From: Utricularia gibba
Lineage: Eukaryota > Streptophyta > Magnoliopsida > Lamiales > Lentibulariaceae
Length of the DNA stretch: 64,000 nucleotides
Direction: 5' to 3'
NCBI GenBank assembly: GCA_002189035.1
Contig: NEEC01000015.1
Coordinates: forward strand, 434,001-498,000
The notes under the pieces are model-generated. The model searched no databases. It had not been told where the DNA came from and saw nothing but the letters and a program-made list of their open reading frames with translations. A program made the position numbers and the translations under genes. Shown piece by piece: positions 1,955-57,966 of this stretch (position 1 is its first letter; every line of letters starts with the position of its first letter).

Positions 1955-4900
1955 ATGAAGCATTCTCTGGAAAGCATGCTTTCCACCATCTCCTTATTGC
2001 TGTGGATACTTACATTCTCTCAAACTTCTTTTTGCTCCCTCATGTCTGATGCTGAAGCACTAATTGCACTGAAGCAAGGATTTGAGTTTTCCAACTTGAG
2101 CTTAGCAAGCTGGGATTCTTCCAGACCTACTTCAGTTTGTTTGTGGTTCGGAATCAAATGCTTGGATGGACGAGTAGTCTCTCTCAATGTATCGAATATG
2201 GAACTCCATGGTTCTGTCTCGCCAGAGATCTCAAGACTAGACAACCTGATAGAGCTGCTCCTAGATGGAAACAACTTCACAGGCGAGATCAGCATTGAAA
2301 ATATGGGAAAACTCCGATTTCTCAACATGTCAAATAACCAGTTCAATGGAAGCCTAGATTGGAACTACTCAACCCTTTACAATCTTGAGGTTCTTGATGC
2401 ATACAACAACAACTTCTCATCAAATCTTCCCTCGCAGATTCCGAACTTACGGAGCATCAAGCACTTGGACTTGGGAGGAAATTATTTCTCAGGCAACATT
2501 CCAAGTAATTATGGAAACTTACTTAGGTTGGAGTACTTGTCATTGGCAGGAAATGATCTTCAAGGAAAAATTCCAAGAGAATTGGGGAATCTCACCAACC
2601 TCAAAGAAATTTACTTGGGTTATTACAATGTTTTTGAGGGTGGGATCCCCAACGAATTTGGAAATTTGGTTAACTTGGTGCACATGGATCTTTCAACATG
2701 TGACTTGGATGGTTTTATACCTCCTGAGCTGGGGAAGATGAAGTCTTTAGAGACCTTGTTTCTGCATATTAATCGATTATCTGGGTCCATTCCAAAGGAG
2801 TTGGGCAACATGACAAGCTTGATAAATCTTGATCTGTCTCTGAATAGCCTCACTGGAGAAGTTCCATTCGAATTCGTTGAGCTCAAGAAAATCAAGCTGA
2901 TGAATTTATTTATGAATAGACTTCAAGGCCATATCCCGGGTTTTTTCGCTGAATACAGAGAGCTGGAGACTCTTAGTCTATGGATGAACAATTTCACAGG
3001 TATAATCCCAAGAAATCTCGGGAAGAATCAGAGGCTCCAAGCCCTAGATTTATCTTCTAACAAACTCGTGGGCAAAATCCCGAAAACTTGTGCTCCTCTA
3101 AACAGCTCAGAGTGCTGATTCTTCACAACAACTTCCTATCTGGGCCAATCCCAGAAAATTTGAGCACTTGTTTGGGTCTTCTGAGGTTGAGGATAGGCCA
3201 GAATTTCCTTAATGGCAGCATTCCAGGAGGTTTGATTTACCTGCCAGAGTTAAATTTCCTTGAACTGCAGAACAATATGTTGTCAGGTTCTCTGTCTGAA
3301 AACACAAATTGGTCATCAGAGGCAGTGGCACTAGGTCATATAAATCTTTCCAACAACCGCTTATCAGGGCCATTGCCGAACTCTCTTTTAAAGTCCTATT
3401 CCCTTCAAATCCTCTTGCTGAATGGAAACAATTTTTATGGCCCCATTCCTCAATCCATCGGCAACCTCAACCAAGCAGCAGTAATTGATCTTAGTAGAAA
3501 TTCCTTGACAGGAGAAATTCCTCATGAAATCAGAAGATGCGTTCATCTCAACCACTTAGACTTGAGCAGTAACAGCCTTTCCGGCCCAATACCAGAAGAA
3601 ATCTCGAATATTAGAATACTGAATTACTTGAACCTGTCAAGGAACTACTTGAATGGGGCAATACCTCAGTCACTGGCCTCTATGGAGAGCCTCACAATTG
3701 CTGATTTCTCGTACAATGATCTATCAGGCGAGCTTCCTCAATCAGGTCAGTTTTCCATATACAATGTTTCCTCTTTTGTTGGCAACCCTCAACTCTGTGG
3801 GCCGTTGTTGACGAAACCCTGCACCTTCATAACAAGTAGAAGTCAACATGGAAAAACGCACTATGAATTCAAGCTAATCTTTGCACTGGGACTGTTAATC
3901 TGCTCACTAGCATTCACAGCAGCAGCTATAGTGAAAGCCAAGTCATTCAAGAAAACTAGTTTGCATTCATGGAAAATGACTTCATTTCAAAAGCTTGATT
4001 TCTCAGTTACAGACATTCTAGAATGTGTCAAAGAAGGCAATGTGATAGGCCGGGGAGGTGCTGGGTTGTCTACTACGGAAAAATGCCAAATGGTGTTGAA
4101 ATAGCCGTCAAGAAACTGTTTGGGCTCAACCGCATCAGCAGCCATGATCATGGATTCAAGGCTGAGATCCAAACACTAGGAAATATCAGGCATAGGAATA
4201 TTGTGAAACTGCTAGCTTTCTGCTCCGATAAGGACTCAAACCTTCTACTCTATGAGTACATGAGAAACGGCAGCCTGGGTGAAGCCTTACATGGGAATAA
4301 AGGAGGATCATTGGCCTGGAATTTCAGATACAAAATAGCAATGGATGCAGCCAGAGGTCTTTGTTACCTTCATCACGATTGCTCGCCAATGATCATACAC
4401 CGTGATGTCAAGTCAAACAACATCTTGTTGAACGCCAGCTTTGAGGCACACGTCGCTGATTTCGGATTAGCCAAGTTTCTGGAGGAAGGATGCGCCTCTC
4501 AATGCATGTCTGCAATAGCAGGATCTTACGGTTACATCGCTCCAGGTAAAGAGCAAGAAGATACATACAGAAAAAGTTTCCGTTCTGTCAATTTTCTAAT
4601 CCACAATATTCATCGGCATTTGCAGAGTACGCTTACACATTGAAAGTCGACGAGAAAAGCGACGTCTACAGTTTCGGAGTGGTGCTCCTTGAACTCATCA
4701 CGGGACGGCGCCCGGTGGGCGGCGAGTTCGGCGAGGGCGTCGACATCGTGCAGTGGACCAAGTGTTCGACGAATTGCCTCAGGGAAGAAGTGACTCGCAT
4801 AATCGACCCAAAGCTGACGGTGGTTCCCAAGGACGAGGTCATGCACGTTTTCTTCATTGCCATGCTTTGCGTTCAGGAAAACAGTGTGGAACGCCCCACC

Positions 4901-5044
4901 ATGAGGGAGGTGGTGCAGATGCTATCTGAATTTCCCCGCCACTCGCCAGAGCAGCAGCCATCCTCATCCAACCGCCGCTCCCAGACCCAAGACAAGTGTT
5001 TTTCCGATCAGAAAGCTCGACGGAATCCTTTTCCTTTGATATGA
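1955..5044 (+). CDS. BAM3: BAM3-like LRR receptor kinase, two frameshifts
   Basis: CLAVATA1/BAM-class leucine-rich-repeat receptor kinase that in this family binds CLE peptides at the plasma membrane. Exon 1 is 1955-4545, intron 4546-4625 (phase 1, within the Ala-Pro-Glu motif of the kinase), exon 2 4626-5044. In order: signal peptide, N-terminal cap beginning [12 protein letters not shown], about 20 LRRs, one membrane span (near 3870-3935), then a Ser/Thr kinase with IHRDVKSNN and DFGLAKFL. The start is the first ATG of the open frame. Two single-base losses break the frame: in a TT run at 3088-3089 (inside an LRR) and in a GGG run at 4063-4065 (inside the glycine-rich ATP loop). With both allowed for, the protein is about 1003 residues, the usual BAM3 size. 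It is either a recent pseudogene or, more likely, a gene with sequencing errors. LRR spacing and the GYYN-containing repeat favour BAM3 over BAM1/2. Confidence 0.85.
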
Positions 5045-5459
5045 AATGAAGTTTTTTAGGGGTTGACAGGAAGCATATATCCATCCATATCTGGATCAAG
5101 ATATTCGTCCCCTTGATCCTCATCTAAGATCTAGCAAAGCGCTATATAATCTAACACGAAGGGCGTCGTGGGTGACCGTACTCGGCCGCCATACAACTTG
5201 AACTCGGGTCAGAACCTAAACACACGAAGAACTAAGCAGACAAATTCAGAAATGTGATGATCTAAAGCAGCCACCCAGATCCATAAATGTTCAACCAGAA
5301 ACTGTGAAATGTATACACACAACGGCACTACAAGTCAAGTCAAAGAGCAACATGCAACAAAAATTGTAAGGGTAGTAATAAATTCCCAGGCATGGAAACA
5401 CCAGCATATGCAGGAGCCAGTGTGAAACTCACCAAGGTTTGCCGAGGGATAGGAAACCA
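5045..5459. other. Convergent 3' region
   Basis: This stretch lies between the convergent ends of the BAM3-like gene (+) and the RABA2 gene (-). It should hold both 3' UTRs. Nothing else is seen. Confidence 0.6.
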
Positions 5460-7648
<2,189 letters not shown>

Positions 7649-10207
7649 TCAGGCTGCAGAGCATCTCCGAGCTTCAAGCAGTACACAGCTGTGAAGCTTC
7701 ACTTCATACGTCAGCTTCCCGGGATCAAGAGCGGCGCCGTCCGCTGTGAAGAAGCCGGGAAACGGGAGCGCCGTGTCGACCAAGCGAAACCACCCCTCGC
7801 CGGGAGCAGGCTGTGGGAGTACAACTTTCTCTGTTTGGATCCCGCTGTTGAATGCCATGAACAAGTCACCTCCAAGATTCTGGGAGCCTGATGCTGGGCT
7901 AGCTTTGGCCTTCAGAATCACGGCCAAGAATCTGGATGATGGTTCGTCCCAGTTAGGCGGGGATTGGTGCGGTCCACGCCATTCGATTCTTTCTTCCTCC
8001 AGGAAGCGGTTTCTCTGAAGGAGATCGCTTCGCCTTGCTTTCAAGGAGCTCAAGAATGAAATGAACTGTCTGATCTGCACACTGAAGCTTGATTTCATGG
8101 CATTCCAATTCAGGGGTTGGCGTTGGGAGTATAGCAGTGAACCTGCAGCCGACTGGCCGCACTCATCTCCCATGTTAAGCACAGGGACACCCAGTGAAAC
8201 AAACAGGATGAAGAGAAAGTTGCGGATTTGCTTGAGTCGTGTTTCGAGCACAATGGCCTTTCTGGAAGGCCCTTCCTCCCCAGAATTCCAACTGAATTCT
8301 GATGATTCCGAATCCCTGCTGCTGAAGCTGACCAGGTCTACAAGGCTCAGCCCAACATTTCTGGTAATGTAATTGAAGGAGAAGGCCGGACCACGGCCAG
8401 CCAAAAAGAGATCGCCACTGCCACACAAACGGGTTGCAAAGTTGCTCAAGGGACATTCACCCTTCAAAAACTTTCTGACATCTGTGCAAAATTTTGAGTT
8501 CATCTCTGCCCATCTTTTCCAGTGAGGAAACAATGTTTCCTTGATCTCCACACCACGTGGATCCCAGAAATCTGCTATGATCTTTGCTTTTGAAAGAAGA
8601 GGATCAAAAGAAATAGCTTCAATCAAGGGAGGGCGTGAAAGAGACTCCCCTTGGAAACCTTCCAACAAAGCAGATGCATTTATGAAGCAAAATCCATCGA
8701 CATGGAAATCACTCACCCAATAACGAAGACTCTGTAAAATCATTTCCAGGACAACAGGGTTGTTGCAATTTGAAGTGTTTGTAAGTTTCACATCCTCGCC
8801 TCCCTCGATCAGATAATGAGAAGAGTTATCAACTTCTCTTGAGGCTCCACCTTCGCTAGCATGTGTAAAAGCAACTTCCAGCAAAACCTCTATTCCATTG
8901 GCATGCAGTTTTTTCACCATCTCTTTCATTGACTTAGCAGCAGCTTTGGGATCTTTGGAAGCTGCAAACAAGTTACTAGGAGAAAAGAAATGACATGGAA
9001 AATAGGGGCCCTTTTTCTCATCAAAGGGGAATATCGGCTCTAGTAGGATTGCATTCACACCAAGATCTACGAAATGTTGCAGCTTCTCAGAAACGCCTGA
9101 AAAACTACCAGAGATATTCGTAGGTAGATTGCTTGAACCGTCTTTGGTAAAGCGTGTGATGTTCAATCTGTAGATGATCAGTTTTTCCATAAGCAAGTTA
9201 GGACGAATTTCCCCACTCCAATCAAATGAAGGCTCCTCATACAATCTTCCTTGCCTCTTACCCAGAAAACCTGTTCCACTATCATGAATAAACCTGGAGT
9301 ATGGATCCAGTAGCATATGTTGATCTTGGCTGTCTGAGGCGCTTCTACAACGATAGCCATATTTAACAAAAGGCGTCGAATCATAGATTAAAGCATGCCA
9401 AATATCACCGGTGCGATTGACATAAGAGTCAAGATCAATCTCAATGGAAGGTTTATCTGCTTTTTCATCAGCATAGAGACAAAGAACTACCCTGTCCACA
9501 CTGCCCGCGAAGAAAGCCAAATTTACAGACCCATCATCCAAAAATGACAATCCCAATGGATATGGATTCCCAGAGCCAAAACCAACAGGTACAATGAAAC
9601 TTGTTTCCCTGTGACTTCTGATTGTTGATGACGAAGAACCTAGCTGAGACTTTAGTAGAATCGATACATACAAAGGTGCTAAATTCTCTTTAAAAACCAG
9701 TTCAGCAGCTAATCTACCAGCTGAATTTCGGACAAGTCGAGTTTCAGTGCAGCCAGTAGACCCTGACCATTTAGAGCCTAGTGGAAGAAAACTCGTTGAA
9801 TCAGCCTTGAACACTCCCCATACCAGAGTCAACTCCTGGAGTTGATCAGTATCTGGCAACAATTCCATCTCAACTTGAACTCCATATGTACCATTTGGCT
9901 TCTTATGAACAACAGCGATCAGATGCTCCTCAGTCTCCATCATAAAACGGTATGCAGCTTTCTTTTCGGAGGTCTTAACGTCAGAAAAACTTGAACGAAC
10001 TAATGCTCTCACTGCATAATGATCGCAAGAAATCCTTCCAGTAGATCTCACAAATTGTCCATGCATTGTTTTCTTCCCAGCAACCATTCTATCAGAACAC
10101 CAAGAACCCAAGTTTTCACCATCAAAATTGGAAAAAAGCAGTAGAGCAGATACAGAAGTGCCACCCCACAAATTCCGTGGCAGAACTGTGTTTCTTAATG
10201 ACAACAT
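7649..10207 (-). CDS. ISA2: Isoamylase 2, non-catalytic debranching subunit
   Basis: Plastidial isoamylase-type protein of 852 residues in one exon; the Arabidopsis ISA2 gene is also intronless. In the family ISA2 is a regulatory partner that forms a hetero-complex with ISA1 and helps trim pre-amylopectin. The N-terminal ~90 residues look like a transit peptide. A starch-binding/N-terminal domain (about 90-300) is followed by a GH13 barrel. The catalytic positions are not conserved: the nucleophile motif is DGFCFINAS (about 504-512) where active isoamylases have DGFRFDLAS. The acid/base region reads ADFWD (545-549), and the HDG motif is RNVG (about 616). Region I is AFTHASEG. This is the expected signature of a catalytically dead ISA2. 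The start is the first ATG in the open frame; a three-codon upstream ORF precedes it. Confidence 0.93.
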   Translation of the reverse strand: MLSLRNTVLPRNLWGGTSVSALLLFSNFDGENLGSWCSDRMVAGKKTMHGQFVRSTGRISCDHYAVRALVRSSFSDVKTSEKKAAYRFMMETEEHLIAVVHKKPNGTYGVQVEMELLPDTDQLQELTLVWGVFKADSTSFLPLGSKWSGSTGCTETRLVRNSAGRLAAELVFKENLAPLYVSILLKSQLGSSSSTIRSHRETSFIVPVGFGSGNPYPLGLSFLDDGSVNLAFFAGSVDRVVLCLYADEKADKPSIEIDLDSYVNRTGDIWHALIYDSTPFVKYGYRCRSASDSQDQHMLLDPYSRFIHDSGTGFLGKRQGRLYEEPSFDWSGEIRPNLLMEKLIIYRLNITRFTKDGSSNLPTNISGSFSGVSEKLQHFVDLGVNAILLEPIFPFDEKKGPYFPCHFFSPSNLFAASKDPKAAAKSMKEMVKKLHANGIEVLLEVAFTHASEGGASREVDNSSHYLIEGGEDVKLTNTSNCNNPVVLEMILQSLRYWVSDFHVDGFCFINASALLEGFQGESLSRPPLIEAISFDPLLSKAKIIADFWDPRGVEIKETLFPHWKRWAEMNSKFCTDVRKFLKGECPLSNFATRLCGSGDLFLAGRGPAFSFNYITRNVGLSLVDLVSFSSRDSESSEFSWNSGEEGPSRKAIVLETRLKQIRNFLFILFVSLGVPVLNMGDECGQSAAGSLLYSQRQPLNWNAMKSSFSVQIRQFISFLSSLKARRSDLLQRNRFLEEERIEWRGPHQSPPNWDEPSSRFLAVILKAKASPASGSQNLGGDLFMAFNSGIQTEKVVLPQPAPGEGWFRLVDTALPFPGFFTADGAALDPGKLTYEVKLHSCVLLEARRCSAA

Positions 10208-11355: not shown

Positions 11356-14348
11356 TCAAACAACTTGGTAGTTTTCTGTTGCGAGCAGCCTTCTCTGTGA
11401 GAACTTGGGAGGATTGCCGCCTTTGATGGGAAGAATGTTGAGCACCTGCAGATTCAGATGCACCTTTTAGTCACCATGGTTCATTTCTAACAAAAAGGAG
11501 GGAGGCAGCATTTGAAAAAAAGTAACCTTAAGATCGCAGAAGGTGGTGGTAGAAGAAAATTGAACTGAAATGGGGAATAGATTCGCTGGATCCACAGCTG
11601 GGATGATGAACTCCATAGCCCCACTGCAGCGTTTGGGGCTCCCAGTTAGATGACATGCAAACGCACAGAAACATAACTTCGACCGGAAAGGGAAGAAGAG
11701 CTAACCTGCGATTCGAGTTATCAATGAGATCGATGGACCACTGCAGGAGGGACTTTCTTGCATCGTATCTGCAAACACCATCGTTCATGGGACATTAGCA
11801 AGACGAAAAGAGGAAAAAAAAAACAAAAGCATGTGATGCAAAACAAAACCAGCACATGAAAAGAGAAACTCTAATTTCATATATTCTTCTAAGCCCCAAA
11901 TTGAACAGACCATTAGCAAACGAGTCATATATTAATCTCCAGTTTGGAAAAGGAGGGACGATTCAAGCTCTCTGATCGATCACCTATGACTAACATTATT
12001 TGGAGATTCTAAAAAACGCTGTAGTTACCTCCATTCCCCATCAATCTGCTGCACATTTGGTGGGTCTCTGAGGGCTGGAAGAGGAATTGAGATGACGACG
12101 TTTTGCAAATTAAACGACTGCGGTACCTCATACTCTAAGTTGACGTATGTTTGGTTCCCAGAAACTGAAGGCCAGCAGTTAACTGCATAATTGTTTCAAC
12201 ATCAGGAAACTGTGTTACAAACAGCTAAGTATGTGGTCAGGAAGAGAGCCTGGATAAAATGAAACTCACTTGAAAATGGCACTAGTGATTCGTCTGCAAC
12301 CTGCATCCGCCATTTCAGCAAGCCAACACCATCAGCAGCCTGGCCAGTAGGAAATGATCGAGTGGGGTCCTTGAGACCCAATATATTATCACTAGCAAAC
12401 AGTTCCTTGTTGATGTTCGGGTGTGTTTTGAAAAGAATTCCAGGGTGACCACCAGACTCAATCTGAAAATAAGACAGAAGTAGAAGGTATGGGAAAAAGC
12501 ATCAAAATTAAAAGACCATAGACCTGTGAGCACACGCAAGCAGCTTAGTAAGGGCTATAGAGTACAAAACAAACCTCAATTTGGATGAATCCATCGTCTT
12601 GGTTCAGTATTTGAAGAGAGAGGGTACCCTGTAGATCAAAGTTTCTGATTCCACCGTCCTGCTTCAATGTTACATTAAGCTTTTCTTCAACAGTTAAAGT
12701 AACAGGATCACTTGGCGGTGGAGCGGCTGGTTTAGAGCCCACGCTTGGTCTGACGTCTTCAACTATCACCTCACCTTCAGCCTTGAGAGATTCCAAAAAC
12801 TGATTTGTCTTTTGCGTTTTCCCCAGTTGCATACCGAGGCCCTTAGATGGAGCCACAGCAGATACTGCTGATCGGCCTAGACAATCAAGTTCAGGTTATT
12901 TAGTGACACTGATAGTTACCACCAGAATAAAACCCCCAAAAAACTATCCTCACTAAATTTTCTTATGAATCATATCGAATTAAGAGATTAAGAGCACTGA
13001 AAAGTTGCTTCTGGAATCAGATCAAGTAAGAGAATCACGAACCTTTGGGCTTTGATGAGGTGGAGTCTATTTCAGTAATCAATCCAAACCCTGAACCACT
13101 TCCAAAACCACCAGAGTTACCTGTCAAACCAGTATCACTACCAAAGCCAGTACTACCCATGGACTGCAGAGGGCGAAATCCGGCTTTTTCAGTTCTGTTC
13201 TTCTCAAGCTACACAATAGCATGATAAATGCGTCATTACATGCAGACAATAGTGGAACGAAAATAACCCACTGACTGCACCAACATACCTTGCTTTTGTC
13301 GATCTCACTAGCCTTCTTCTTCATTAGATCTTTAGTCTCATTAATCTTGCTTTGTAACACCAACTTGTGCAATCTCTCTTCATGACTTTCCATCTCACAG
13401 AACTGTTTGACTTGTGAAACAGTGACATCCTCTCTGTGCCCAAGTGAAATCACTTCATCAAATGCAAAAAGAATTTCAAATGCCATCTTGCCAATTCCCT
13501 CCTCATCGGGGAGTAACAGTATTCAGCCACCTATGAGAAGTCAAGGAGAGACAAAATTTCCACGCAAAACGAGACACTAGAAGGCATTGGCAAAAGAAAA
13601 AGCTTCACAAAGTATAGTCATGAAAGGGCACACATCCTCATTAGAATGGACATATTTTCTCAAAAAAGAAAGCAGCAAACTGAACAAGGATACAAGTTTA
13701 GAAAGCAGCATGAGGGTTTCCAAATCTTCAACAATGTTGCTCTGTTTATTTGTGACAAGAAGCAAGTAGAGTGACTCAATTGGTTGATATACATATCGGA
13801 CATTTTCAGTCTCAACATATGTGTGCTGTTTCCCTGTTCCAACCAATTTTGGAAATGCTGCAAGGTATCCCTCAATTCGTATGCGAGACATGTCAACAAA
13901 CTGCCTCGAAACAAGAGCTGAAACATAGAATATCAGATGTCTTATCAAACAACACAAGATTCCATAATAACAAAACTTGAACCAAGAATGCCATGAAATA
14001 AAAAGCCTTCAGTTTTTCAATGAACATAGAAGCTACAATAAAGAAGAGAGTAGTGCAGGAAACAAAGAAAAATGTATAAGGCCAAATGAGACAAACATAA
14101 ATGTTGCCGGATCCAACACCAGAATACAGAAATAACGAATCAAATAAAAGGAAAAACAATGAAACAAGTTAGATAAAACAAAAGGAGAGCCCAGTTTATC
14201 CGCACACCAGGATGCTACCTTTTCCTGATTTGCTAATGATAGAAGCTGCAAGTACAACCTGAAACACAAATTTACACACAAAAACATGATCGCATAGGCG
14301 ACTTGACAAAATCGAAAAAACAATGATAGGAATTCAAGAAGTTACCAT
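11356..14348 (-). CDS. Coatomer subunit delta (delta-COP), one frameshift
   Basis: Subunit of the COPI coat for Golgi-to-ER and intra-Golgi vesicles. The coding exons, 5' to 3' on the minus strand, are 14348-14346 (only the ATG), 14258-14219, 13917-13694, 13530-13289, 13208-13043, 12876-12575, 12462-12270, 12182-12029, 11768-11706, 11623-11527 and 11445-11356. The N-terminal longin part contains [20 protein letters not shown]; the linker has [11 protein letters not shown]; the C-terminal mu-homology domain has [28 protein letters not shown] and the end ENYQVV. All phases agree except in the fourth exon, where one base is missing from the GGGG run at 13508-13511 (CCCC in the coding strand). 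Allowing for it gives 524 residues, the usual length. COPI is essential, so a sequencing error is the likelier explanation. Confidence 0.93.
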
Positions 14349-23802: not shown

Positions 23803-26800
23803 TTACATGCTGTCCAAGCTGAGACTGCTCATAAAGCCGCCGTTGAGCGGGCGGCATTTGCTTCTATGGAGTTTCTGCTCCTTTTGGTTCATCATGGCTT
23901 TGATCTCTTGATTCAACTCATCTTCCCATTTCGGGAGGGGGCATCTGAGCTCACTGAATCTGCTCCATTTGTGGATGGATACTCATTGTCCTGAGGCAAG
24001 ACCTGGTTCCGTTCAGGCCTGACACGGGCTGGTGTGCTCTTCCCCGTTGCCTGCATTTCCATTCTCTGGTCATGGATGATGGACTCGATTCGCTCATCTG
24101 GAAGGCTGGGCTTGCTATTCTGTGGAGTGGCCATCCGGGAATCCCCTGAAAACGGACCCCGGTTCTCCACTGGATTGAAACATCTACCACCGGATGCTCT
24201 TGATGGTTCCAGGACAAGAGATTCAGGCAAGAGGATGATCTTAACCTCCACATGTTGCTGCAGAACGGCTTCCAAAGAATTTGTGATACTGCTGATGAAA
24301 CCTTCAGCTCTGGTTCTGATGTTCCGGTCAGAAAATGCGATATGCACGAGAAGACCACCTGCATGATAATAAGAAAATGTGCGTGAAACCATCAAGGCAA
24401 AAAGTTCTTAAAGATTTTTAAGATAAGAAAAAGCATAGAGATTAGAAGTTGTGAATGAGTGTTTTACCTTTGATGTCAGATATGGACACAAGCCTTCCAT
24501 TTGCATAAAGAAGTTGTCTCAGTGTATTTGAACGGCACTTTTCAATGCAGCAATTCCAAATGTTATTCAACATCTTCGAGTCCATGCATTTGAAGGCCAG
24601 TCTTCCATCTGCCGGAGCAGTTGTTTCTTCAACACTATCGGTAGCCTTAGTTGAACCATCTTTGCCGGCGAAATCCCGGGGAGCTGATGCCGGTTGTGGA
24701 GAAGCTGAATTTCCAGTGATCAAATGAGCATCAGATTTTCTGCTCAAAGGGGTAACTTGTCCTAGCGTACAGCTCTGGTCCTCTCTGATCACCTTTGAGC
24801 TCGGCCTTCGACTGCTCCCTGAATGGCTTAGGTCTGATGCAGACAGAGAACCCAAATGCAAAAGGGTCGCCTTGAACCAAGTTGAGCGCTCAGCTGAACC
24901 TCTGAGATGCTTTTCCGCATCACAGAGAATGGCTAATGCCTGCTTCAGCCTGGCTACTTCTCGTTCTGTCACTGAAACAAATCCAAAACAGCTTAGATGG
25001 GACTGCAGTACTTGCTTAAATGCAGACAGTTAGGCCACTTACAGCTTCGCCTATTTGAGAAAGAATCAAACTTTCCTCCCACACCAGCATGAGTCCCAGC
25101 AATCATGTCTACAATAAGGGTTGCCATCTGAGACATGAGAACGATCGGATCGACGCCCAAGTCCAGCAACTCACGAGCTCGGATCACGGTTTCTGTGGTG
25201 TTAGATGACATTGCAAGCTCTAGCAGTTCCAGTAGCTTTTCATCAGAGACACCACCCATCTGCATGATATGGCCAGCCACATAGTATGTAAGCATACCAG
25301 GAGACATCATTTAATCTAATGCAGGGATGATATCAGAAGAGAGGAAATACTCACAAGATCATTGACTAAGGATATGGTGATTCTCTTTCCCAACAAACTC
25401 AACTGATCTAGCATGGTTTCGGCATCACGAAGAGAACCATCTGCATTGGAAGCAATCAGCTCAAGCGCATCTGACTCTATGTCCAAGCTCTCACTGGTAG
25501 AAATCTTCATTAGACGAGCAATTATTTCACCAGTAGCAATTCTGCTGAAAAGATGCCTTTGACACCGGGAAAGTATGGTGTGTGGTATGCTCTCAGCATC
25601 TGTTGTAATGAAAATGAAAACAATATGGGGCAACGGTTTCTCAAGAAGCCGAAGAAATGACAGCCATGCCTTTGAAGGCAACAAATGGCATTCCTCAATA
25701 ACAAAAACCTTGAAATCTTTCAAAGCTGATGGATGGGTGCTCAAGAGACTTTTCAGGTGATTCTTCATGCAGCTGATTTCCTTTCGGTTGCATCCATCAA
25801 CTTCTAACAGGCAGCTGCTCTTACCAGATATGAAGTTATTGCATGCCTTGCAAACCCCACAAGGCTTTGCCTCTTCAATGGCAAGGCAATTTAGTGCAGC
25901 AGCAAATATTCTTGCTGTTGAAGATTTTCCAGTTCCACGAGGGCCATGGAAAAGATAAACTGGGGCGATTCTTCTTCTTGAAATCGCAGTCCTCAGAGAA
26001 TGAACAACTATATTCTGCCCAACGAGTTCATCGAAAAGAATAGGTCTGTATTTATGGCTCAGGGTTCTTGTACCTTCATCATTTTCATCATCTGGTTGAT
26101 CACAAAGAGCAAGTGGTTCAGACCCTTGTCGATTTCCACAAGCTGAAGGCAATCTTCTTCCATCCAACTGGCTCATTGCCTCCAGATGAAGCTCTCCAAG
26201 ACTCATCAAGCTTTCGTTGTCACTACTCCCACTATCCGATGATGCCACTCGATGCCTGTTGTCACCATTAGAAAGAAGCGGGACAAGACTTTGAACTAAT
26301 CCTCGAGAATTAAGTCTCCTGTTTGCAGAACTTAAAGATGAACAGTTATGCTGCTTTAGGCAGATAATGCTGCTTCCTTTCCTTTTCAAGATGTCAGACA
26401 GGGATGGTGAGCAGCAGCTCCCATACCCTGTTCTTGACTTCGGAGTTGACCTCTTCGACCAGCAGCAAGAAATCCCACATCCCTGTCGCTCTGGAAAATC
26501 CCATTGATCATCTACCTCATCATCAGCATCATTCAGAGATGCTGTTCCTGTATCCCACAACTCGATGCTAGGATTTGGAACTGCATTTTTGTGGTATGAG
26601 CTTGTGGAAAGCGCAGGGGTACTTAAAGAAGCGGAATCATCATCTTTCCCACGGCCCTTTATAAGCTTCACCGATGAATGTTTCCAGCCAGCATTCTTGA
26701 AACCAGCAAGAAATGGTGAAGATGCAGACTCCCTTTTCACATCTTCGAAGTTATCACAGTCCTCCTCACTCTCCCCCATTTGACAGACCAAATTCACAAA

Positions 26801-27484
26801 ATCGTCTCCTGGCAAACCTACACCAGACACGCCATCTGCATTGTGTTTTCCATATCTAAGATATACATTCTGCTTCCCGGATTTCAGATTCTGATTCTTC
26901 ACACGAACACCAGAAAAACTCCTCCTCGGTTTCTTCTTGATTGTTCTCCGCACTGACGGAGTAAAACTCGCTTCTCTACACTTCAAGATCATAGAAGCAT
27001 ATCTCTCACTGAACCAAGCATCACTCTTGCAATCATTTCCACCACCAAACCTCGCATCACTCAAGATATCTGCATCCATTTCTTCATCAGGAGCTGAAAA
27101 CAGCTCCTGCCCTTTGTTAATCTCACCATCATGTTCTTTCCCATTCTGCTTGCACCTTAAATCCCTATCCCAGTTACATAAGAAAATCCTCTTGTCTTTC
27201 TCCATCACATTCAGGTTTCCCTTTTCGCCAACTACAGTATCATCATTGTTATCAACTTGCTCTGTAATCCTAGAACCATAGCTACCGCCGCAATCATCGT
27301 ACCCACTCTTGAGACGTGGCCTGGAAACGGTTCTTGAAGAAAAAGGAGTCTGCATCAAGGAAGTACACGAAGTCCCAGGGTCTCTCAACACCCTCGCGGC
27401 CTTGCGAATTTGAGTGAGTTCTTTCTTCAGATGAAGGTTGCTTGGATAAATACCACCGCAAGAATCCTTGTTCACGGAACCCAT
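23803..27484 (-). CDS. STICHEL-like DnaX-type ATPase, frameshift near the end
   Basis: Plant STICHEL family protein related to bacterial clamp-loader gamma/tau (DnaX); STICHEL itself controls trichome branching. Exons: 27484-25355, 25259-25043, 24971-24468 and 24358 to the end, all in phase. The N-terminus has the family motif LHLKKELTQIRKAARVL, followed by a long Ser-rich low-complexity region. The clamp-loader core follows: RPILFDELVGQ, P-loop HGPRGTGKSST, zinc module CGVCKAC, FVIEECHLLP, and ILSRCQR with its arginine finger. A C-terminal region contains ELLELAMSS and LTEREVARLKQAL. As read, the frame stops at 23913. If one C is missing from the run at 23937-23941, it continues through PKWEDELNQEIK to a stop at 23803-23805, giving about 1135 residues, close to STICHEL-like 1. 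The core is certain; the C-terminal extension is probable. Confidence 0.88.
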
Positions 27485-34436: not shown

Positions 34437-34444
34437 CACGTGTC
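34437..34444. promoter_or_regulatory. G-box/ABRE-like motif upstream of the NAC gene
   Basis: CACGTGTC combines a G-box core with an ABRE-like ACGTGTC, about 740 bp upstream of the NAC start. bZIP, bHLH or PIF factors bind such sites. A single motif of eight bases can occur by chance. Confidence 0.35.
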
Positions 34445-35309: not shown

Positions 35310-35347
35310 CTGCTGCAGCCATTGCGTTTCGCTTTGCTCAGAGGAAA

Positions 35348-36718
<1,371 letters not shown>

Positions 36719-48093: not shown

Positions 48094-49792
48094 TCTTTGA
48101 CAGCAAACCTGAAACAAGGGACAAACCAGCAAATCGACTACACATATTCCAAAAAAAGCATCATGGGTACCAAAAAGAACTCAACTTCATCATTACCCAC
48201 CTAAAGAAAAGAGCAAAACAATATCCTACTTCTCTCACATGACCTGTAAGTAACCATACAAGACTGATTCATCGCGACTCTGAAAACTACCCATCTAAAT
48301 CTGAATCCATGAGCGAATCAGACTTGAGCAACAGAAGCACCTTACCAGTAGCTTATAGGTACCAAAAACTCCTCAATTATTTGAGACCCTGAAGCAATAG
48401 ACCAAGTCAAAATCGAAAAACCAAAGCCCAGAACAAAAAGAATGAAGACACCTCACAGGCAGAGGAAAAGGGCTGCGCACCAATGGGTCATCCCCTCCTC
48501 CCACGCTTCGATTGGATCGGTTTCTGTTTCCCACCGCAGAGATGCATCATTGGGGACCGGCCTTCCATCTCCCCCCACATGCTGCAGACCCACAGAAAAC
48601 CAGTAAACAACCCCTTGCGCCCCCAGTTCCCGAAGCCACGACTACCAAAGCTATCTGGTAAAGCTTATCCCTTTTTCTTTCTGATAGGTAGTAGATAGAT
48701 ATATATATTAGATGCCCCTGGCCCGTCCTACTTTCGGAGAGGATGATTAACTTTCCGACTTTCTTTTTCCATTTTTGTATGATTCGGACAAGTATGTTTT
48801 TCCCTACAGTTTTAGTAAAAATCCATGAACACACTTTAATACTGTTTTTTCTACCATTTTATTTATTTAAAACATGATATTTCTGGAACATTCCTTTTCA
48901 AACCCAAAGCACCAAATACTTATTCTTGCAATTCTTGATTAAAAAATATATACGGGAAACCTTATAAATTCATCTTTAAAAAATCCCAATATTCGCCGCA
49001 AGTGTCATGCCTGACGTGGCATTGCGTTTGGTACGGGCACACGCACACAGATGTCTGGCACTTACTACACCTATTCAGTTACTGGTCCGGACAAAGACAT
49101 ACCTTGAACACATCATCAGCTAATTGCGTCCATGTCTGTACTGGATATGGACCCTTAACTCCTTTAACTTCCATCCCTGTGAAGGAGGACAGGAAACAGA
49201 GACGAGATGAAAAACGAAAAACTACAATGGCCTTGCGTGCAAAACTAGAAGGATTTACAGAGAAACAAGCATGCTGCATGAGAAGAAGGGCTGGCAATTA
49301 CATCTCACCTTGAGCAGTGTTCAGCAGTCAGTACCAGAGTTGGAGGATAGTACTGTGTTTCTTCAGCATCTCGTGACAGGATCCATAGCTACAGGCTGGC
49401 CACCATGTCTAGGAAATGTGAAATCAAATCTTAACCCGGGATTTACAGGAACGCAATGAATCAGCACAGAAAGCATACCACTATCAGCGATTCTAGGTTG
49501 TGGCTCTGCATTCTGAGAGAAATTCTTAAGCAGTTGACCTGCTTAACTATGAGATCATGCAGGCATTTGACTGTAACCTGCATTACAGTGATCCTTGCAT
49601 CATGTTGCTTCTTCATGTTCCACAACAAAGCAAGCGGGCCTTCACTGCATAAAGAATCAACAAATGTACCTACCAAATTCAAGGGGAAAGAAAAAAGAAG
49701 ATTTTTATGTGGTGTAAAGGAATCAGCATGAGTTCTAAAGCATCGACAATTGGGGAGGGCATCCTAATGGGAATCAGATTTCCTCTCATCAT
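48094..49792. other. PHYA leader and promoter region
   Basis: Immediately upstream of PHYA lies its leader, with a 5' UTR intron ending at 48109. The rest should be the PHYA promoter and the 3' flank of the next small gene. No further gene is recognised. Confidence 0.55.
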
Positions 49793-50137
49793 TCATTCGT
49801 CTGAGAGGAAGGAGGGATTGCATTCCTGGGAATAGAAACCGTTGCCTTCGATGAATTGTCTCAGCATATCAAAAGTGAAATCCCGACTATTGGGATCACC
49901 GGTGGGCGATGCAGCGCCGTATTCGAGCGTCCGTGGCTGCTTCTTTAACCCAAAGCAGCAAAGACGCTGCTGCGGCGCGCGTTCCCATCTCGGATTCAGA
50001 TGTTTCTTGCTCTTTCCAAGCCGAAACAGAGACGGCAGTTTCACTTCCTTCCCGCAACCCCGACACTTGGTCTTCTCTCGGACTCGGCCCGCCGCATCGA
50101 CTCCCCCGCTGTTGGCCGGCGGATCCTTATCAGGCAT
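49793..50137 (-). CDS. Small plant protein of unknown function with CxxC
   Basis: An open frame of 114 residues from its first ATG, starting MPDKDPPANSGG. Function unknown. A basic region with a CRGCG motif (a possible half zinc site), a pair of cysteines (LCCFGLKK), and a C-terminal block, RDFTFDMLRQFIEG followed by FYSQECNPSF, are visible. That last block resembles a short motif I have seen in small plant proteins of unknown function, which is the main reason to believe the gene. The open frame continues upstream without another ATG. It lies between PHYA and another small gene on the same strand. Confidence 0.6.
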   Translation of the reverse strand: MPDKDPPANSGGVDAAGRVREKTKCRGCGKEVKLPSLFRLGKSKKHLNPRWERAPQQRLCCFGLKKQPRTLEYGAASPTGDPNSRDFTFDMLRQFIEGNGFYSQECNPSFLSDE

Positions 50138-51120
50138 GCAACGCAGTCCGAGCGGCGATTGACGCAGGGGAACGGTCTGGAAGCATATAATTGGAGACAA
50201 AATAGGGGCGGAAGGCCAGAAAATCCAGATTTGTGATACGACACGGTATCGGAGAAACTGATCACGCTCCTCCCTATCGATGGACAATTTGTGCGGAGGG
50301 GGCTCGCAGGAGGAGCGGGGACGAGGGAGACGTTGGTTGGCTGTCTCAAGCGGTGGTGTCCCGCCACGTGTCCCACCCCATTACCCTTCGTCCCGGAAAC
50401 TGAAAATCTGTTGCCAAACCAAACTTCCAAGTTCCACCTCCCCGGCTCGCCACATCCACAGTGGGATCCATCAACCAGCACCATACCCAACCTTAGAGTC
50501 AGCCGTGGTCCAGTTCGCGCTTAGTCCAAGTTTGAGTCCATGGACTGGAGGCCTGGATGATCCCGACTCTACTGGGTCGGATTCAGTTGAAGGCAGAGCA
50601 CTGGAGCCTGGAGGAGCAGCGCAGACCCTTCAATCAGCAACGGCGTGTTTATTACCCAGTTGCCGAAAACTCTGTAGGAGAAGAGCCAGCTTTCTAGCAC
50701 CCGGCTGCTCTGGATTAGATCTGGGGCCATATGGAGTCGCCATTTTTGCCCGTTCCGAGAACATCCCCTTTGGATATCGTTCCGATTACCATTCACCAGA
50801 AAAAAGGCTTGCCCTAAACACCATCACTTTTAACTGGCATTGGATGATACGGAAGGCAGAGACAGCAACCAAAACGAGGAAACTGTTCATCAGAAGTGAA
50901 CATCGGAAAATGAATAATGAAACTAGACCTGCTTACAGTGCTCGTCGAGAAGGAAGCTTGGGATCATGGGTATGGGTGGAGTAATCTATCTAAACGCTAA
51001 AAGCCCATGCGATTGAAGTGCCAGTGGGTGGGTTCTCACAAATGGATTGGAATTGAAACTGATGATAAACATAAGCATCTGAAGTCACGAGAAGCCGCAG
51101 GTTAAAATGTCTTTCGACAA
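50138..51120. other. Intergenic region between two small genes
   Basis: This is the upstream region of the 114-residue gene and the 3' flank of the 101-residue gene. An open frame on the plus strand (50280-50984) has low-complexity composition and no family resemblance. Confidence 0.5.
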
Positions 51121-51426
51121 TCAAAAAACTACCCGGAACTGGGGAGATTTGGGGTCCCTCGCAGGGAGAATTTCCCAGCGGCAGGGCTCTATTTCCTCTG
51201 AAACTGGGCAATAGCCAGCCAGAGTCACCTGGTCTCCGGAGGCGGCGACTGAACCGAACTCAAACACCGACACTTCCGCCGCTGGAATCTCCGGTCTTCG
51301 GACCTCCATCGCTCCATTCAAACCGGGAACCTCAACCGCTTCTGTTTTTGTCCCCGCCTTGAGGATCTGCGATTCATCGCCTTTCTCCTCCGCCTTGCGT
51401 CCGTTGAACCACGAAAAAATGCCCAT
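51121..51426 (-). CDS. Small conserved plant protein, MGIFSWF type
   Basis: A single-exon gene of 101 residues beginning MGIFSWFNGRK. Its second half, VSVFEFGSVAASGDQVTLAG followed by CPVSEEIEPCRWEILPA and ending PQFRVVF, matches a small uncharacterised plant family as I remember it. No membrane span or known catalytic motif is visible. The start chosen is the ATG at the conserved MGIFSW; an extension 12 codons upstream lacks conservation. The gene is head-to-head with UTP21, with 235 bp between start codons. Confidence 0.75.
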   Translation of the reverse strand: MGIFSWFNGRKAEEKGDESQILKAGTKTEAVEVPGLNGAMEVRRPEIPAAEVSVFEFGSVAASGDQVTLAGYCPVSEEIEPCRWEILPARDPKSPQFRVVF

Positions 51427-51661
51427 TGCGCGATTCCGGAAACTCCTTCTAAGGTTTCGCACCTTGCTTATCCGATATATTTATTATACAAAGGGAGGGA
51501 GGGGGTATTCTATTAACGAATGACGAAAACACCCTTTGTGGTTTTCTTTTCTTTAACAGAAGCTCCCGCGCCGTGCCTATTAGTTGGAGAAACCCTGAAC
51601 TTCCGTCGGCGCCGCCGCGTCTTCGTCTGATAGCCGGTTCTGGTGAGGGGCTAGATAAATA
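51427..51661. promoter_or_regulatory. Putative bidirectional promoter, small gene and UTP21
   Basis: Only 235 bp separate the two divergent start codons, so both 5' UTRs and core promoters must overlap in it. A TATA-like AT stretch lies at about 51474-51490. The assignment is from position. Confidence 0.6.
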
Positions 51662-54600
51662 ATGGGCATATTCGAGCCATATCGTGAAATTGGATACATA
51701 GCGGGAAACGTTCCTTTCTCGGTGCAGCGTCTCGGCACCGAGACTTTCGTTACCGTCAGCATCGGAAAAGCTTTTCAAGTTTACAATGTCAGTTTCATTT
51801 CAATTTATAGCTTTTATGTTGGAGGCAGTTCACAATTTCCTCGGTTCAGTGACTAAAATTGTTTTATCTCGTGACGTGCAGTGTTCCAAGCTTAATCTCG
51901 TAATCTCTGGTAATTTTGTAGTTCTTGTCTTGTCTAGTTCCTGCTCGGTTTGAAGGATTCTGTTCTACTTTGTGCCGGCTGCTCGTAAGTTTGGGAATGG
52001 CTTACGCTTTCTCTTGGATTGCAGGCCCCCAGCTACCAAAGAAAATCAGAGCTTTAGCCTCATATCGTGAATATACATTTGCAGCGTACGGGAAACATAT
52101 TGCTATTGTGAGGCGTGCCCATCTGGTATGTGATTGTACGTAGTAGTATGATCAAACACTGTTCATGTTTTGCTTCCCTAACCAGATATTAGCAATGATG
52201 CCTGCCATGCTTTGGAAACTAATGATATGTGAAACTTGGCTGATTGTTGCATCACGTATTTATTGCATTATATCACACCTTCCTTGATATCATACTTTGT
52301 ATGATATTGGTTTGGCTATGTGGTTAGATATTGTCAAGAATTTGGAACGTGCCTATTTTTATGCTGTGTACAATTAAATCGTTAGTGGCCATGCTTTACT
52401 GGGATAATCCTTTTACAGGTGGCAACTTGCAGTGGACATACTTCTAAGATCAATCATTTGCTACTATTTGGCGAACACATTATAAGCACTGATGTTAAGG
52501 GAAGTGTGTACATCTGGCCCTTTAAGGGGCATTCAAATAGTATATCTCCTGTAGGCCATATATGTCTAGAAAGCAAATTTACTCCGAGCTGCTTGATGCA
52601 TCCAGATACATATTTGAATAAGGTAGTCCTTCACATGTCACTGGCATAGGACTATACTGATGCAGAATTGTTTTTTAACCTTTTGTTATCTAAACCGTTT
52701 TTTCCATGTTATAAAATAGGTAATTATTGGAAGTCAAGAAGGCTCATTTCAACTATGGAACATCAGCACAAAGAAAAAACTCTATGATTTTAAAGGATGG
52801 AATGCTGCCATATGCTGCTGTGTTTCATCACCAGCACTACATGTAGTCGCTCTTGGCTGTGCTGATGGGAGAGTTCATGTTCACAATATATATACGGATG
52901 AAAAGCTTTTTACGTTTGCTCACTCCACTCGTGGTGCTGTGACTGCTTTATCATTTTGCACAGATGGACGCCCTTTATTGGCATCTGGTGATTCATCTGG
53001 TGTCATATGTCTATGGAATCTTGAGAAGAATAGACTTCATTCTGTTATCGGAGAAGCCCATAACGGTTCTGTAATCTCTCTCTACTTTTTCCCAAGAGAG
53101 CCTGTGTTAATGAGTTCATCAGCTGACAACTCTATAAAAACGTGGATATTTGACACCAGTGATGGGGATGCTCGTCTTCTGCGCTTTAGAAGTGGTCATA
53201 GTGCACCACCTCTATGTATTAAGTTCTATGCTAATGGAAGGCACATACTCTCTGCTGGGCGAGATCGGTCCTTTCGGCTTTTCTCCATAGTACAGGATCA
53301 GCAGAGCAAAGAACTTTCTCAGCGCCATGTATCAAAGAGAGCAAAAAAGCTAAAGCTGAGTGATGCTGAAATCAAACTTAAACCTGTAATTGCATTTGAT
53401 GTAGCAGAAATCAGGGAGCGTGATTGGTGTAACGTAGTCACATGCCACCTGGATACAGCCAAAGCATACGTGTGGAGGCTTCAAAATTTTGTCATCGGAG
53501 AGCATATTCTTTCACCACGCCATAAGAGCCGAACTCCAGCTAAGGCATGTGCTATCAGTGCATGTGGAAATTTTGCACTAGTAGGTAATGCTGGTGGTTG
53601 GATTGAGCGCTTCAATCTTCAGTCAGGAAACAGTCGAGGCAGCTATATCGACAAGTCAGGGGGGAATCTCTCTGCGCATGAGGGTGAAGTGATTGGCATT
53701 GCTTGTGATTCAACAAATACCATTTTGATTAGTGCCGGTTTCCATGGGGATATTAAAGTATGGGATTTTAAGGGACTAACATTAAAATTTAGAATGGATA
53801 TGGGTTGTACACTGGTTAAAATTGTCTACCACCGTTATAATGGCCTTCTAGCAGTCATGGCTGATGATTTACTCATCCGGTTGTTTGATGTTGTTGCACA
53901 GCGAATTGTTAGGAAATTTGAAGGTCATACGGACCGTATAACCGATGCTTGCTTTAGTGAGGATGGTAAGTGGCTTTTAACTTCTAGTATGGATAGTACT
54001 GTCAGGGTGTGGGATGTAATCCTAGCAAGAGGGATTGATGTGTTGAACGTCGATGTGCCTGTGATAGCGCTTTCTTTGTCACCGGGTATGGATGTTTTAG
54101 CAAGTGCTCATGTGGATCAGAATGGGATATATCTGTGGGTCAATCAGGAAATGTTTTCTGTGCCAAGTAAAGCTGTTTCCTTTGGGCGTATGAAGGACAA
54201 TGCTGGTTCCTTGGGCAGCGGTTTTGATGAGGCTGAAGAAAACCATCAAGAAAAGCAAGATGAACAGAGTTTTCACGTTTCATGTGATCACCTACTTGAT
54301 CTCGTGACTCTTTCTATGCTGCCCAAGACCCAGTGGCAAAGCTTGATCAACTTGGATTTAATAAAAGCTCGTAACAAGCCAATTGATCCTCCAAAGAAGC
54401 CAGAGAAGGCACCATTTTTCTTGCCATCAATTCCATCTCTCTCTGGAGACATTGTGTTTAAGCCTGGTGTATCTGCAGAAGGTGAGGATAAACAGATAGC
54501 TGAGGTAGAAAAGAAACAGGAAAAGAGTGGCATTGCAGTTACACAGTTTCTACAGCTTCTTGAATCATCATCCAGGGAAGGGAACTGTAAGTTCAGTATT

Positions 54601-55183
54601 CTTATACTCTCCATGTAACTGCACAAATCTAGTTATGCTCACATTTGAATGTGCTTCCAGTCGCAGCTTTTACAGATTACGTCAAGGGCTTATCGGCTTC
54701 AAGCTTGGATATGGAATTGAGGGTGCTTCAGATTATAGATGATGTCGACGAGGAAGATCTCATGAAGAAACCTGAAACACACTTCATTTTACTCCTGATG
54801 GAATATTTCATCCATGAGATCTCAAGGGGTCACAACTTCGAGTTCATACAAGCTCAAATCCGTTTATTCTTGACGGTATGTACCCATCTCCATTTTTCCA
54901 TTTTTATTTTTATTTTTTTTGATAACGCGAGCCAAAGCGATGGAAATTTTTCATTGTTGGAGCTAATAGTGTCAGTGCTGAGTAATGTTTTTTTCGCAGT
55001 TATTCTCATATAGTTTCGCTTGTTTCATGACAGATTCACGGGGAAACCATAAGACGGCAGCAAGTTGTACGAGATAAAGCTCAGAAACTGCTCGAGACTC
55101 ACTCCGCTGTCTGGCAAAAACTCGATAAGATGTTTCAGAGCGCCAGATGCACCTTGACATTTCTCAGCAACTCACAGTTTTGA
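51662..55183 (+). CDS. UTP21: WD40 protein UTP21/WDR36, small-subunit processome
   Basis: Nucleolar component of the U3 snoRNP/SSU processome needed for 18S rRNA maturation. Exons: 51662-51787, 51882-51909, 52025-52125, 52419-52622, 52720-54586, 54661-54875 and 55034-55183, giving 896 residues, all in phase. It has two tandem beta-propellers with repeated GH...WD units: for example TCSGHTSKINHLLLFGEH, SGDSSGVICLWNLEK, SAGRDRSFRLFS, FHGDIKVWDFKG and SSMDSTVRVWDV. A C-terminal Utp21 domain (DLVTLSMLPKTQWQSLINLD, FTDYVKGLSASSLDMELR) follows. Most repeats are in one 1.87-kb exon. The sequence is intact. Confidence 0.94.
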
Positions 55184-55478
55184 GCATGCCTGTCTTATTG
55201 CAGGCTTTTTTATATTTGAATGACTGGAGAGCATACAGATGGCCATTTTCTCTATAGTATTACCATTTTGTTGCCCATGTTTTCATATTTGACCTCAGTT
55301 TCTCAATGAGTTTGCCATTGCAGAAGGCCACAGCAACTTGTAATGATTCATGGGATCTTTGGAAGGTTTTACATAGAAACAATACAAGGAAACTGCTCTT
55401 CACAGATATTATAACTATCCCATTGCCCTTGTAGAATGATGGTGAGGTAAACTGCCACCAGCCACAGGAGCATCATCA

Positions 55479-57966
55479 TCATCTCACAGCTTCGGGAGCC
55501 GAATTGCAGTAAGGCGTATGCAAGCACACCAGCTTGGTGCATGTTAGACACACGGTGGCAAACACTGAACCAACAACAAAACCAAACATGCTCCTCCTCC
55601 TATCCAAATTCACTGCTCGTCGGAAGATGCTGCCAAAGCATGGAAGGAGCCCCCCACAGGCGAAGATCATTGCATGATCCAAGCCACTGTAATCTATCCG
55701 AGCAATGATGGCTCCAATGGCGGATAAAGGACCGACCACCCAACAAGAGCTGCCGATAGAATGGACCCATTCCAACTGTCTGTTGCTCCAAAGATGCAGC
55801 TCGCCACTGCAGCGCCTCGAGGGAAGCCATGGAGGGCGACCGGCAGCAGCATGTGTCTTCCGAGGCCGTAAGCCGACGGTGCGGCGACGCCCAAGGCGAG
55901 ACCCTCAGCAAGAGCGTGGAGAGCAATTGCAGCACAAGCCAGGATAGATTGGAGCGTCAGGGAGCTGAAGGAGAAGCCTGTTATGCTGGTCAGTGAATCA
56001 GCTGAAGTTTTCTTACGAGTCCCAAGGTTTTTAGCAGTGGAGATGACTGTGCGGACAAACGCAGATCCAATCCCAAGAAGAATGAGGACAGGGAGAAGGC
56101 CCATTTTTGAGGAAAGGATCAGTTGAAGGGGTCTCCACAGACTAAGTACAGCAGCAATTCCAGCAGCCACACCGGTTAGAAGTGCATGCTGAAGTTGGAA
56201 TATGAGAGCAAACGCTACGAGGGCAAGGCCACCAAGCAGTGGACCGAGGCCAAATAGGAGAGATACTGCATAACCAGAGGCGTCTTGAGGGCTGAAAAAA
56301 TAAGACAAAAAATAAAGGAAAAATCCCATATTAAGGAGACGTACATGTTAGAAACATCAAACTCCCATATTAAGCCCCAGACAGATCAGATGACAGAAGG
56401 AACCACAGATGGCAAAAGGGTGTCAGAAAAAAATGGAATAGCATTAGTGAAAGAGATCTCACTTGTAGTTGTTACCGAAGTACTCAAAAATTGCACTGAG
56501 TGCTTCCATAAATGCAACAGAAAGTGTCGCTGCCGATGCTACATGAGATGGGGCAGCTTCCTGCAGTGGATATGGATGCACCATAAATGAAGTAACCAAT
56601 TTATGCTAAGTAAAGAAGTTCACATGTAATGATGTGCTTGTGCTCGAAAGCCAGCCTGATTTAAGGGGTATGAATAATCTGTTTTCCATCAACGAAAACT
56701 GTTTGATGCAAAAGCATGGAGCGCTTACAAATATATGGCCATCAAGAAGGACAACATGGTTACCTTGAAGCCATCAGGGAGAACCTCAGACACCACCATC
56801 CAAAGCATACACCCTGCAGCAAATCCGGTTGCAAACGGCAAGAGCTTGTTGAATGCATCAGCACAAATAAATGAGGGGATGGCCACGATAGGCTGCAAGT
56901 TGATCATCGGTGATTAGAAGAAATCGTGGAAAAAGTCAGGTGATGTTGAATTGTCGAGACTCCATACCTGGGGCAATGATGTAATCACGCTCCATAACAT
57001 GGCATTTCTGGGAGATACTCCTCTTGATGCCAGGACCATGCTCACAGCCAATCCTTCAGGTATATTATGAATGGCAATAGCCAACGTAACCAATATACCG
57101 TTTGACAGGCCTTTGGAGCCAGCAAAAGAAACTCCAACACCAGAGCCCTCTCCAACAGAATGCAGTGTCATGATCCCCACAACAAGAATTGCTTTAGCTG
57201 CTTCTGCTCCCTTAATATCCAACATGCTCACTTCACCATGCCCCTCGAGAAACTGAAGAGGAAATAAGTGTTGTAATACCAACATAAAAGAAAGCCTTCG
57301 AAAAGTTCTTGCTAGATGATTATAAAAAGTTAGATTCACATAGCGATGAACATAACCAGATTTGAATGAACGTTAATCACATCATCCTTCTTGCATTTGG
57401 GTATGAAATAGTTAACCGTGCCAGAAAATATCAAAGGCTGTAACTAAGGGAGATGGGAATAATAGATACGGCAAATGAAAATCACATATCCAAATGCATA
57501 CCTTCTTGGAAAGCAATATGAATATGCCACCAGCCAAAATGCCCAAAACCACCCAACCACCGCTCCCGTGTTCCTGCCCCTCCTGTATAAGGTCAAAACT
57601 AGCTGCAAGCATTACACCTGCAGCCATTCCATTGCACACTCCTGCCCATTGAGGATCAAGCTCCACAAAAAAGAATGGCACAGCACCCAAACCAGTAGCA
57701 GCAGCCATGGCGAGAGTTAAAAGTGCAACCGTCAGCACTGGCACTCGATTGTTTCCACCAACGACTCCAGAAATATCACCACCACCCGCATTCGAGTCAA
57801 ATGCATACTCCTTACCAGACCCATCTATGACAGTGCCCCATCCATTCCCTTGTGGGGCAGTGATCATTGTTTTCAAGGTTTCATCCTCATGCCTGGCTAT
57901 GGCAAGATGACCGAAAGCAAGCATACAGAAAAGAAGCGAACTAATCCAACTTGCTTTTAAGTACAT
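55479..57966 (-). CDS. ZIP-type metal transporter (At3g08650-like), one frameshift
   Basis: Predicted zinc/iron transporter of the ZIP superfamily, similar to the plant protein At3g08650. Exons: 57966-57502, 57252-56968, 56892-56764, 56560-56463 and 56291-55479. It begins with a signal peptide or first span (SWISSLLFCMLAFGHLAIA). It has many membrane segments and the metal-site motifs TLHSVGEGSGVGVSF and AIAIHNIPEGLAVS, repeated in the second half as ALHALAEGLALGVAAP. The C-terminus CTKLVCLHTPYCNSAPEAVR is conserved. In the last exon one base is missing from the CC run at 55736-55737 (GG in the coding strand), shifting the frame between AALVGW and GPLSAIGAI. Allowing for it gives 596 residues and restores agreement with relatives. 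A sequencing error is more likely than decay because both sides are well conserved. Confidence 0.9.

What the first reader, a model, noticed from the sequence alone, without database searches (positions are those of the whole stretch)
3088..55737. Five single-base losses, all in homopolymers, break four conserved genes
Seen directly: reading frames of the BAM3-like (3088-3089, 4063-4065), delta-COP (13508-13511), STICHEL-like (23937-23941) and ZIP (55736-55737) genes each resume in another frame after one base is lost from a run of two to five identical bases. There is no opposite case (insertion) in about 29 kb of coding sequence I joined. Independent decay of four unrelated genes would also give substitutions, stops and insertions, and delta-COP is expected to be essential. 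Inference: residual homopolymer under-calling in a long-read assembly, about one per 6 kb of coding sequence.
Basis: partly seen in the sequence, partly recalled or inferred. Interest (0 to 1): 0.65.

Follow-up and report, generated by a model that had tools for sequence, protein, structure and literature searches.

The report
Assembly errors, not broken plant genes
Four conserved genes in this bladderwort (Utricularia) genome look broken because the long-read assembly dropped single bases, mostly in short G or C runs, and the same error recurs in unrelated genes all over the genome, so it is a sequencing artefact rather than biology.

Summary
The five frame breaks are real in the given sequence, and each is one missing base. 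Tested genome-wide, the same lesion recurs in unrelated families on many contigs: 3 in 44 PPR genes, 5 in HSP70 genes and 13 in GRAS genes. I read 26 junctions as one-base losses and none as a clean one-base gain; two junctions in one further gene are ambiguous. Residual runs at the breaks are longer than random deletion gives (mean 3.9 vs 2.2, none of 20,000 draws as high), and 22 of 26 are G or C runs (11 expected). Two assembled copies of one GRAS locus differ over 2.2 kb by one substitution and one G in a G run, which breaks the frame in one copy only. Delta-COP in the window is the only complete copy in the assembly; its two relics show a stop and 2-bp and 4-bp gaps, as real decay does. 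Codons after the breaks look constrained. COX1 and contig sizes suggest the U. gibba PacBio assembly. No reads were available.

The parts
1956..5044 (+). BAM3-like LRR receptor kinase gene, read in three frame segments (start approximate)
   Evidence: LRR and kinase Pfam hits in three overlapping ORFs; paralogue on C98 with one 907-aa ORF
3083..3089 (+). Break 1: one base missing near AAAA/C/TT
   Evidence: paralogue alignment
4063..4066 (+). Break 2: one base missing at GGG|TT; five paralogues have an Ile codon here, so probably not a run base
12029..13930 (-). Delta-COP (coatomer delta) gene, the part studied; only complete copy in the assembly
13508..13511 (-). Break 3: one base missing at a C run (C4 left)
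23823..27480 (-). STICHEL-like gene (DNA polymerase III subunit-like AAA domain)
   Evidence: paralogue on C375
23933..23941 (-). Break 4: one base missing at CCCCC T CCC
55479..57961 (-). ZIP-type metal transporter gene
   Evidence: Pfam PF02535 (E 4.5e-05, below the curated cut-off); paralogue on C213
55736..55741 (-). Break 5: one base missing at GGG T GG

Best explanation
The five breaks are residual consensus errors of a long-read (very probably PacBio) assembly. During consensus calling one base was dropped at each site, preferentially in runs of three or more G or C. The genes themselves are very probably intact in the plant. Shown here: one lesion type, one direction, run and G/C enrichment, genome-wide recurrence, and the lack of other decay in these genes. 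Inferred: that reads from the plant carry the base, and that the assembly is the U. gibba PacBio one.
For: 1) All five are net one-base losses. 2) The same lesion recurs elsewhere: PPR 3 in 44 genes and 62.8 kb, with no gains and no in-frame stops in the motif chains; HSP70 5; GRAS 13. 3) Residual run length at the break averages 3.88 against 2.20 for random deletions (0 of 20,000 draws as high); 14 of 26 have a run of 4 or more against 2.4 expected; 22 of 26 are G or C runs against 11.0 expected. 4) Two assembled copies of one GRAS locus differ over 2.2 kb by one substitution and one G (G3 vs G4) that cuts the long ORF in one copy. 5) Delta-COP is the only complete copy; its relics on C2 and C375 carry a stop, 2-bp and 4-bp gaps and many substitutions, unlike the window copy. 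6) Codons after the breaks look constrained against the paralogues: pN 0.116 vs pS 0.876 after BAM3 break 2, 0.150 vs 0.578 after the ZIP break, 0.147 vs 0.608 after the STICHEL break. 7) Precedent: a Quiver-polished PacBio plant assembly had 38,889 deletion-type and 8,611 insertion-type conflicts with short reads but only 1,631 substitutions, dominated by runs of more than three bases; 91 of 91 Sanger checks agreed with the short reads, and more than 1,000 genes would have been broken (PMC4663752).
Against: No raw reads, transcripts or second assembly could be examined. One probable non-run loss (4063) and one GRAS site with no residual run show that the errors are not strictly homopolymeric. 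The precedent also shows insertion-type conflicts, and I found no clean gain among 26. One HSP70 break is shared by contigs C304 and C241; their coding part is identical, so they are not independent. Breaks are not visible in the P450 and CCT tables.
Confidence: 0.95

Rival explanations
1. Real, recent loss-of-function mutations: after whole-genome duplications, redundant copies are decaying and a single deletion has just broken each gene.
For: BAM3, ZIP and STICHEL have paralogues with long open frames; dead relics of delta-COP show that gene decay does happen in this genome.
Against: All 26 resolved lesions are one-base losses with no clean gain, and no in-frame stop was found in the PPR chains; spontaneous Arabidopsis indels run 47 insertions to 62 deletions, and indels are only about 10% of mutations (PMC10731980). 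Delta-COP has no other complete copy. Sequence after the breaks looks constrained. Real relics look different.
Confidence: 0.03
2. A real lineage-specific mutation process: deletion-biased repair of oxidised guanine runs in Utricularia, a genus whose COX1 carries the Cys-Cys change linked to reactive oxygen and genome shrinkage.
For: Strong G/C-run bias and exclusive loss; COX1 reads LLLLCCSALVE; deletion-biased repair has been proposed for this family (PMC11688529).
Against: It would have to break many conserved genes at once, including the sole delta-COP, without leaving other damage. Two copies of one locus, 99.9% identical, differ by just such a G, which is simpler as a calling error.
Confidence: 0.015
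3. Programmed ribosomal frameshifting or transcript editing that restores the frame.
For: The downstream frame is conserved in the window genes tested.
Against: I see no shared motif or position beyond the runs; the junctions lie in unrelated families, and paralogues of the window genes are in frame without a shift. Editing by base insertion is not known for plant nuclear mRNAs (own knowledge).
Confidence: 0.005

Closest known systems
Residual homopolymer indels in PacBio (SMRT) plant assemblies, e.g. azuki bean (PMC4663752)
   Same: Indels far outnumber substitutions, deletion-type conflicts outnumber insertion-type 4.5 to 1, runs of more than three bases dominate, coding frames are broken in many genes
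   Different: Here I find no clean gain among 26; the platform is inferred, and no short reads were available to confirm single sites
Gene-fragmenting errors of long-read assemblies (PMC12007338; PMC8812927; abstracts)
   Same: Frameshifts that look like pseudogenes; homopolymer-length errors are the commonest residual type
   Different: Those papers treat small or bacterial genomes
True pseudogene relics of delta-COP in the same genome (C2:5923445-5923956, C375:2813374-2813496)
   Same: Same gene family
   Different: Relics keep only one or two exon pieces, with a stop codon and gaps of 2 and 4 bp; the window copy has all the exon pieces searched for and one missing base

Membership tests
Residual long-read consensus error | Single-base indels, one dominant direction | tested here: met
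   26 of 26 resolved junctions are one-base losses; two junctions in one further gene (L109) ambiguous
Residual long-read consensus error | Concentrated at homopolymers | tested here: met
   Mean residual run 3.88 vs 2.20 null, 0 of 20,000 draws as high; window sites alone p = 0.004; PPR sites alone not significant (p = 0.32)
Residual long-read consensus error | Spread over unrelated genes and contigs | tested here: met
   PPR, HSP70 and GRAS genes on more than ten contigs besides the window's genes
Residual long-read consensus error | Copies of one locus assembled apart disagree at runs | tested here: met
   C316 vs C412, one G-run difference in 2.2 kb; one locus only, and an allelic difference is not excluded
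Residual long-read consensus error | Independent accurate reads carry the base | not testable with these tools
   No reads or second assembly available
Unitary or duplicate pseudogene | Mixed lesions: stops, substitutions, varied indels | tested here: not met
   No stops in 62.8 kb of PPR chains; window genes show one or two missing bases only; delta-COP relics show the mixed pattern
Unitary or duplicate pseudogene | Relaxed constraint after the lesion | tested here: not met
   pN well below pS after the breaks in BAM3, ZIP and STICHEL; a very recent break would not show in this test
Programmed ribosomal frameshift | Conserved shift site shared by relatives | tested here: not met
   Paralogues of BAM3, ZIP and STICHEL read through without a shift

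The most novel reading that the evidence does not exclude
The losses are real: this bladderwort lineage has a mutation or repair process that deletes single bases from G/C runs and has recently broken many conserved genes at once.
Probability: 0.02. Interest if true: 0.75.

Novelty: not a real feature. Interest (0 to 1): 0.2.

Why it matters
If this is the public U. gibba reference, many of its gene models, those of GRAS genes in particular, may carry false frameshifts. Claims of gene loss, truncation or pseudogenization that rest on the assembly alone then need a read or transcript check first. It has no biological novelty.

Tried and rejected
Intron mistaken for shift: PPR locus L079 and GRAS locus L101 proved to be introns; the Utp21 and phytochrome ORF changes in the window are introns. 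'All DELLA genes broken at one site' was considered as evidence and dropped: two intact DELLA-like copies exist (C451, C375). The C304/C241 HSP70 break was considered as an independent replicate and dropped, because the coding part is identical in both contigs. GRAS loci L109 (two junctions that fit +1 or -2) and L111 were left out of the counts. P450 and CCT tables showed no clear adjacent-hit breaks, but these only detect breaks where both sides score. Lan et al. 2017 was not held in the paper library, so the assembly's polishing history was not checked. The U. gibba truncated DCL3 report was considered as a possible victim, but its authors say they confirmed it by RNA-seq and 5' RACE (PMC8333044).

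Full report
What was checked. Translation around the five positions shows each gene's frame resuming after a net loss of one base. The genes are a BAM3-like LRR receptor kinase, delta-COP, a STICHEL-like AAA protein and a ZIP transporter (Pfam; delta-COP also by gap-free alignment to coatomer delta 5a1u_H across the break). Other frame changes among large ORFs of the window, Utp21/WDR36 and phytochrome, are ordinary introns.

Where the window lies. It is C412:434001-498000 of a 100.09 Mb assembly in 516 contigs. The mitochondrial COX1 reads WLLPPSLLLLCCSALVEVG; the two adjacent cysteines are shared by all Utricularia studied and some Genlisea (PMC11688529). A 6.8 Mb contig (C451) matches the 6.8 Mb Unitig_8 named for the U. 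gibba PacBio assembly (PMC8333044). I infer, without a named record, that this is the U. gibba PacBio assembly.

Paralogues. BAM3 (C98, 81% over the kinase piece, 907-aa ORF), ZIP (C213, 70%) and STICHEL (C375, 78%) have a second copy with long open frames, so single-copy essentiality cannot be claimed for them. Delta-COP differs: a search with 428 residues found all exon pieces only in the window; C2 holds two pieces, one with a TAA, and C375 one short piece, with 2-bp and 4-bp gaps in the DNA alignments. These relics are an internal picture of true decay, and the window copy does not look like it. A gap or withheld stretch in the assembly could still hide another copy.

Genome-wide control. 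PPR genes are mostly intronless. In 44 loci (62.8 kb of motif chain) there are three frame changes, all one-base losses (L044, L047, L078), no gain and no in-frame stop within a chain. HSP70 matches break at five junctions with overlapping or abutting hits, all in the loss direction, confirmed by sequence at C304, C451, C496 and twice at C255. GRAS matches break at many places; sequence shows thirteen one-base losses in twelve loci. Two of these loci, L103 and L110, share one conserved C-run site, as L098 and L099 share another. L101 is an intron, L109 is ambiguous and L111 was not used. PPR loci were chosen by profile score, not by being broken. HSP70 and GRAS junctions were found from the break itself, so their rates are approximate.

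Run context. For each of the 26 junctions I took the longest run touching the two bases left of the damaged codon or their neighbours, and compared it with random one-base deletions in coding sequence of the same families. Observed mean 3.88, null 2.20, maximum of 20,000 draws 3.08. Runs of 4 or more: 14 against 2.4 expected. G or C runs: 22 against 11.0 expected. By group: window p = 0.004, HSP70 p = 0.005, GRAS below 1 in 20,000, PPR p = 0.32 (three sites). The anchors on either side of each break were placed by hand from family consensus or paralogues, which is a source of subjectivity. The GRAS and HSP70 backgrounds are short (3.3 and 1.6 kb), and several GRAS sites share ancestry, so the sites are not fully independent.

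The homopolymer claim needs care. The missing base is usually at a position where several bases give the same or a similar residue, so its identity is not shown. At 4063-4065 all five paralogues carry Ile after Gly, which points to a lone A and not a run base. One GRAS site (L097a) has no residual run at all.

Within-assembly replicate. C316 (38 kb) and C412 carry the same GRAS locus: over 2,200 aligned bases there is one substitution and one missing G (G3 vs G4), and the copy lacking the G has its ORF cut to 412 residues where the other is open for at least 598. An allelic difference cannot be excluded, but the lesion type is exactly that of the finding.

Constraint. Against paralogues, codons after the breaks keep pN well below pS: BAM3 after break 2, 0.116 vs 0.876; ZIP after, 0.150 vs 0.578; STICHEL after, 0.147 vs 0.608 on 27 codons. 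Pairwise values average both lineages, and synonymous sites are near saturation for BAM3, so this shows no long relaxed phase; it cannot date a very recent break.

Conclusion. Residual base loss in a long-read consensus is the best explanation (0.95). It is a documented error type in PacBio plant assemblies (PMC4663752). A real deletion-biased process in this lineage is the most interesting reading not strictly excluded, and it is unlikely. No reads were available, so the last step, seeing the base in independent data, remains undone.

Noticed in passing
L115 (C316:31000-33200) and L116 (C412:853373-855573): Redundant contigs in the assembly: the same GRAS locus is assembled twice, differing by one substitution and one G. 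C241/C304 is another such pair, and equal scores suggest C376/C413, C377/C321 and C251/C244 as more (not fetched).
   Followed up: partly
L096 (C515, COX1): Mitochondrial COX1 carries the Cys-Cys motif typical of Utricularia, which helps to identify the source organism.
   Followed up: yes
L002 (C2:5923445-5923956) and L003 (C375:2813374-2813496): Two dead relics of delta-COP with a stop codon and small gaps; the C375 relic lies about 19 kb from the STICHEL paralogue, echoing the window, where the two genes are about 10 kb apart, so that block probably comes from a duplication.
   Followed up: partly
L098 and L099 (C375 and C142); L103 and L110 (C255 and C412): Pairs of GRAS paralogues are broken at the same conserved C run, so the error recurs at the same codons in separate genes.
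   Followed up: yes
L109 (C414:3444770-3444960): A GRAS gene near a contig end with two junctions that fit either one-base gains or two-base losses; the only candidates for the opposite direction.
   Followed up: partly
window 543-562: A run of 20 G in non-coding sequence is kept in the assembly, so long runs are not simply collapsed.
   Followed up: no
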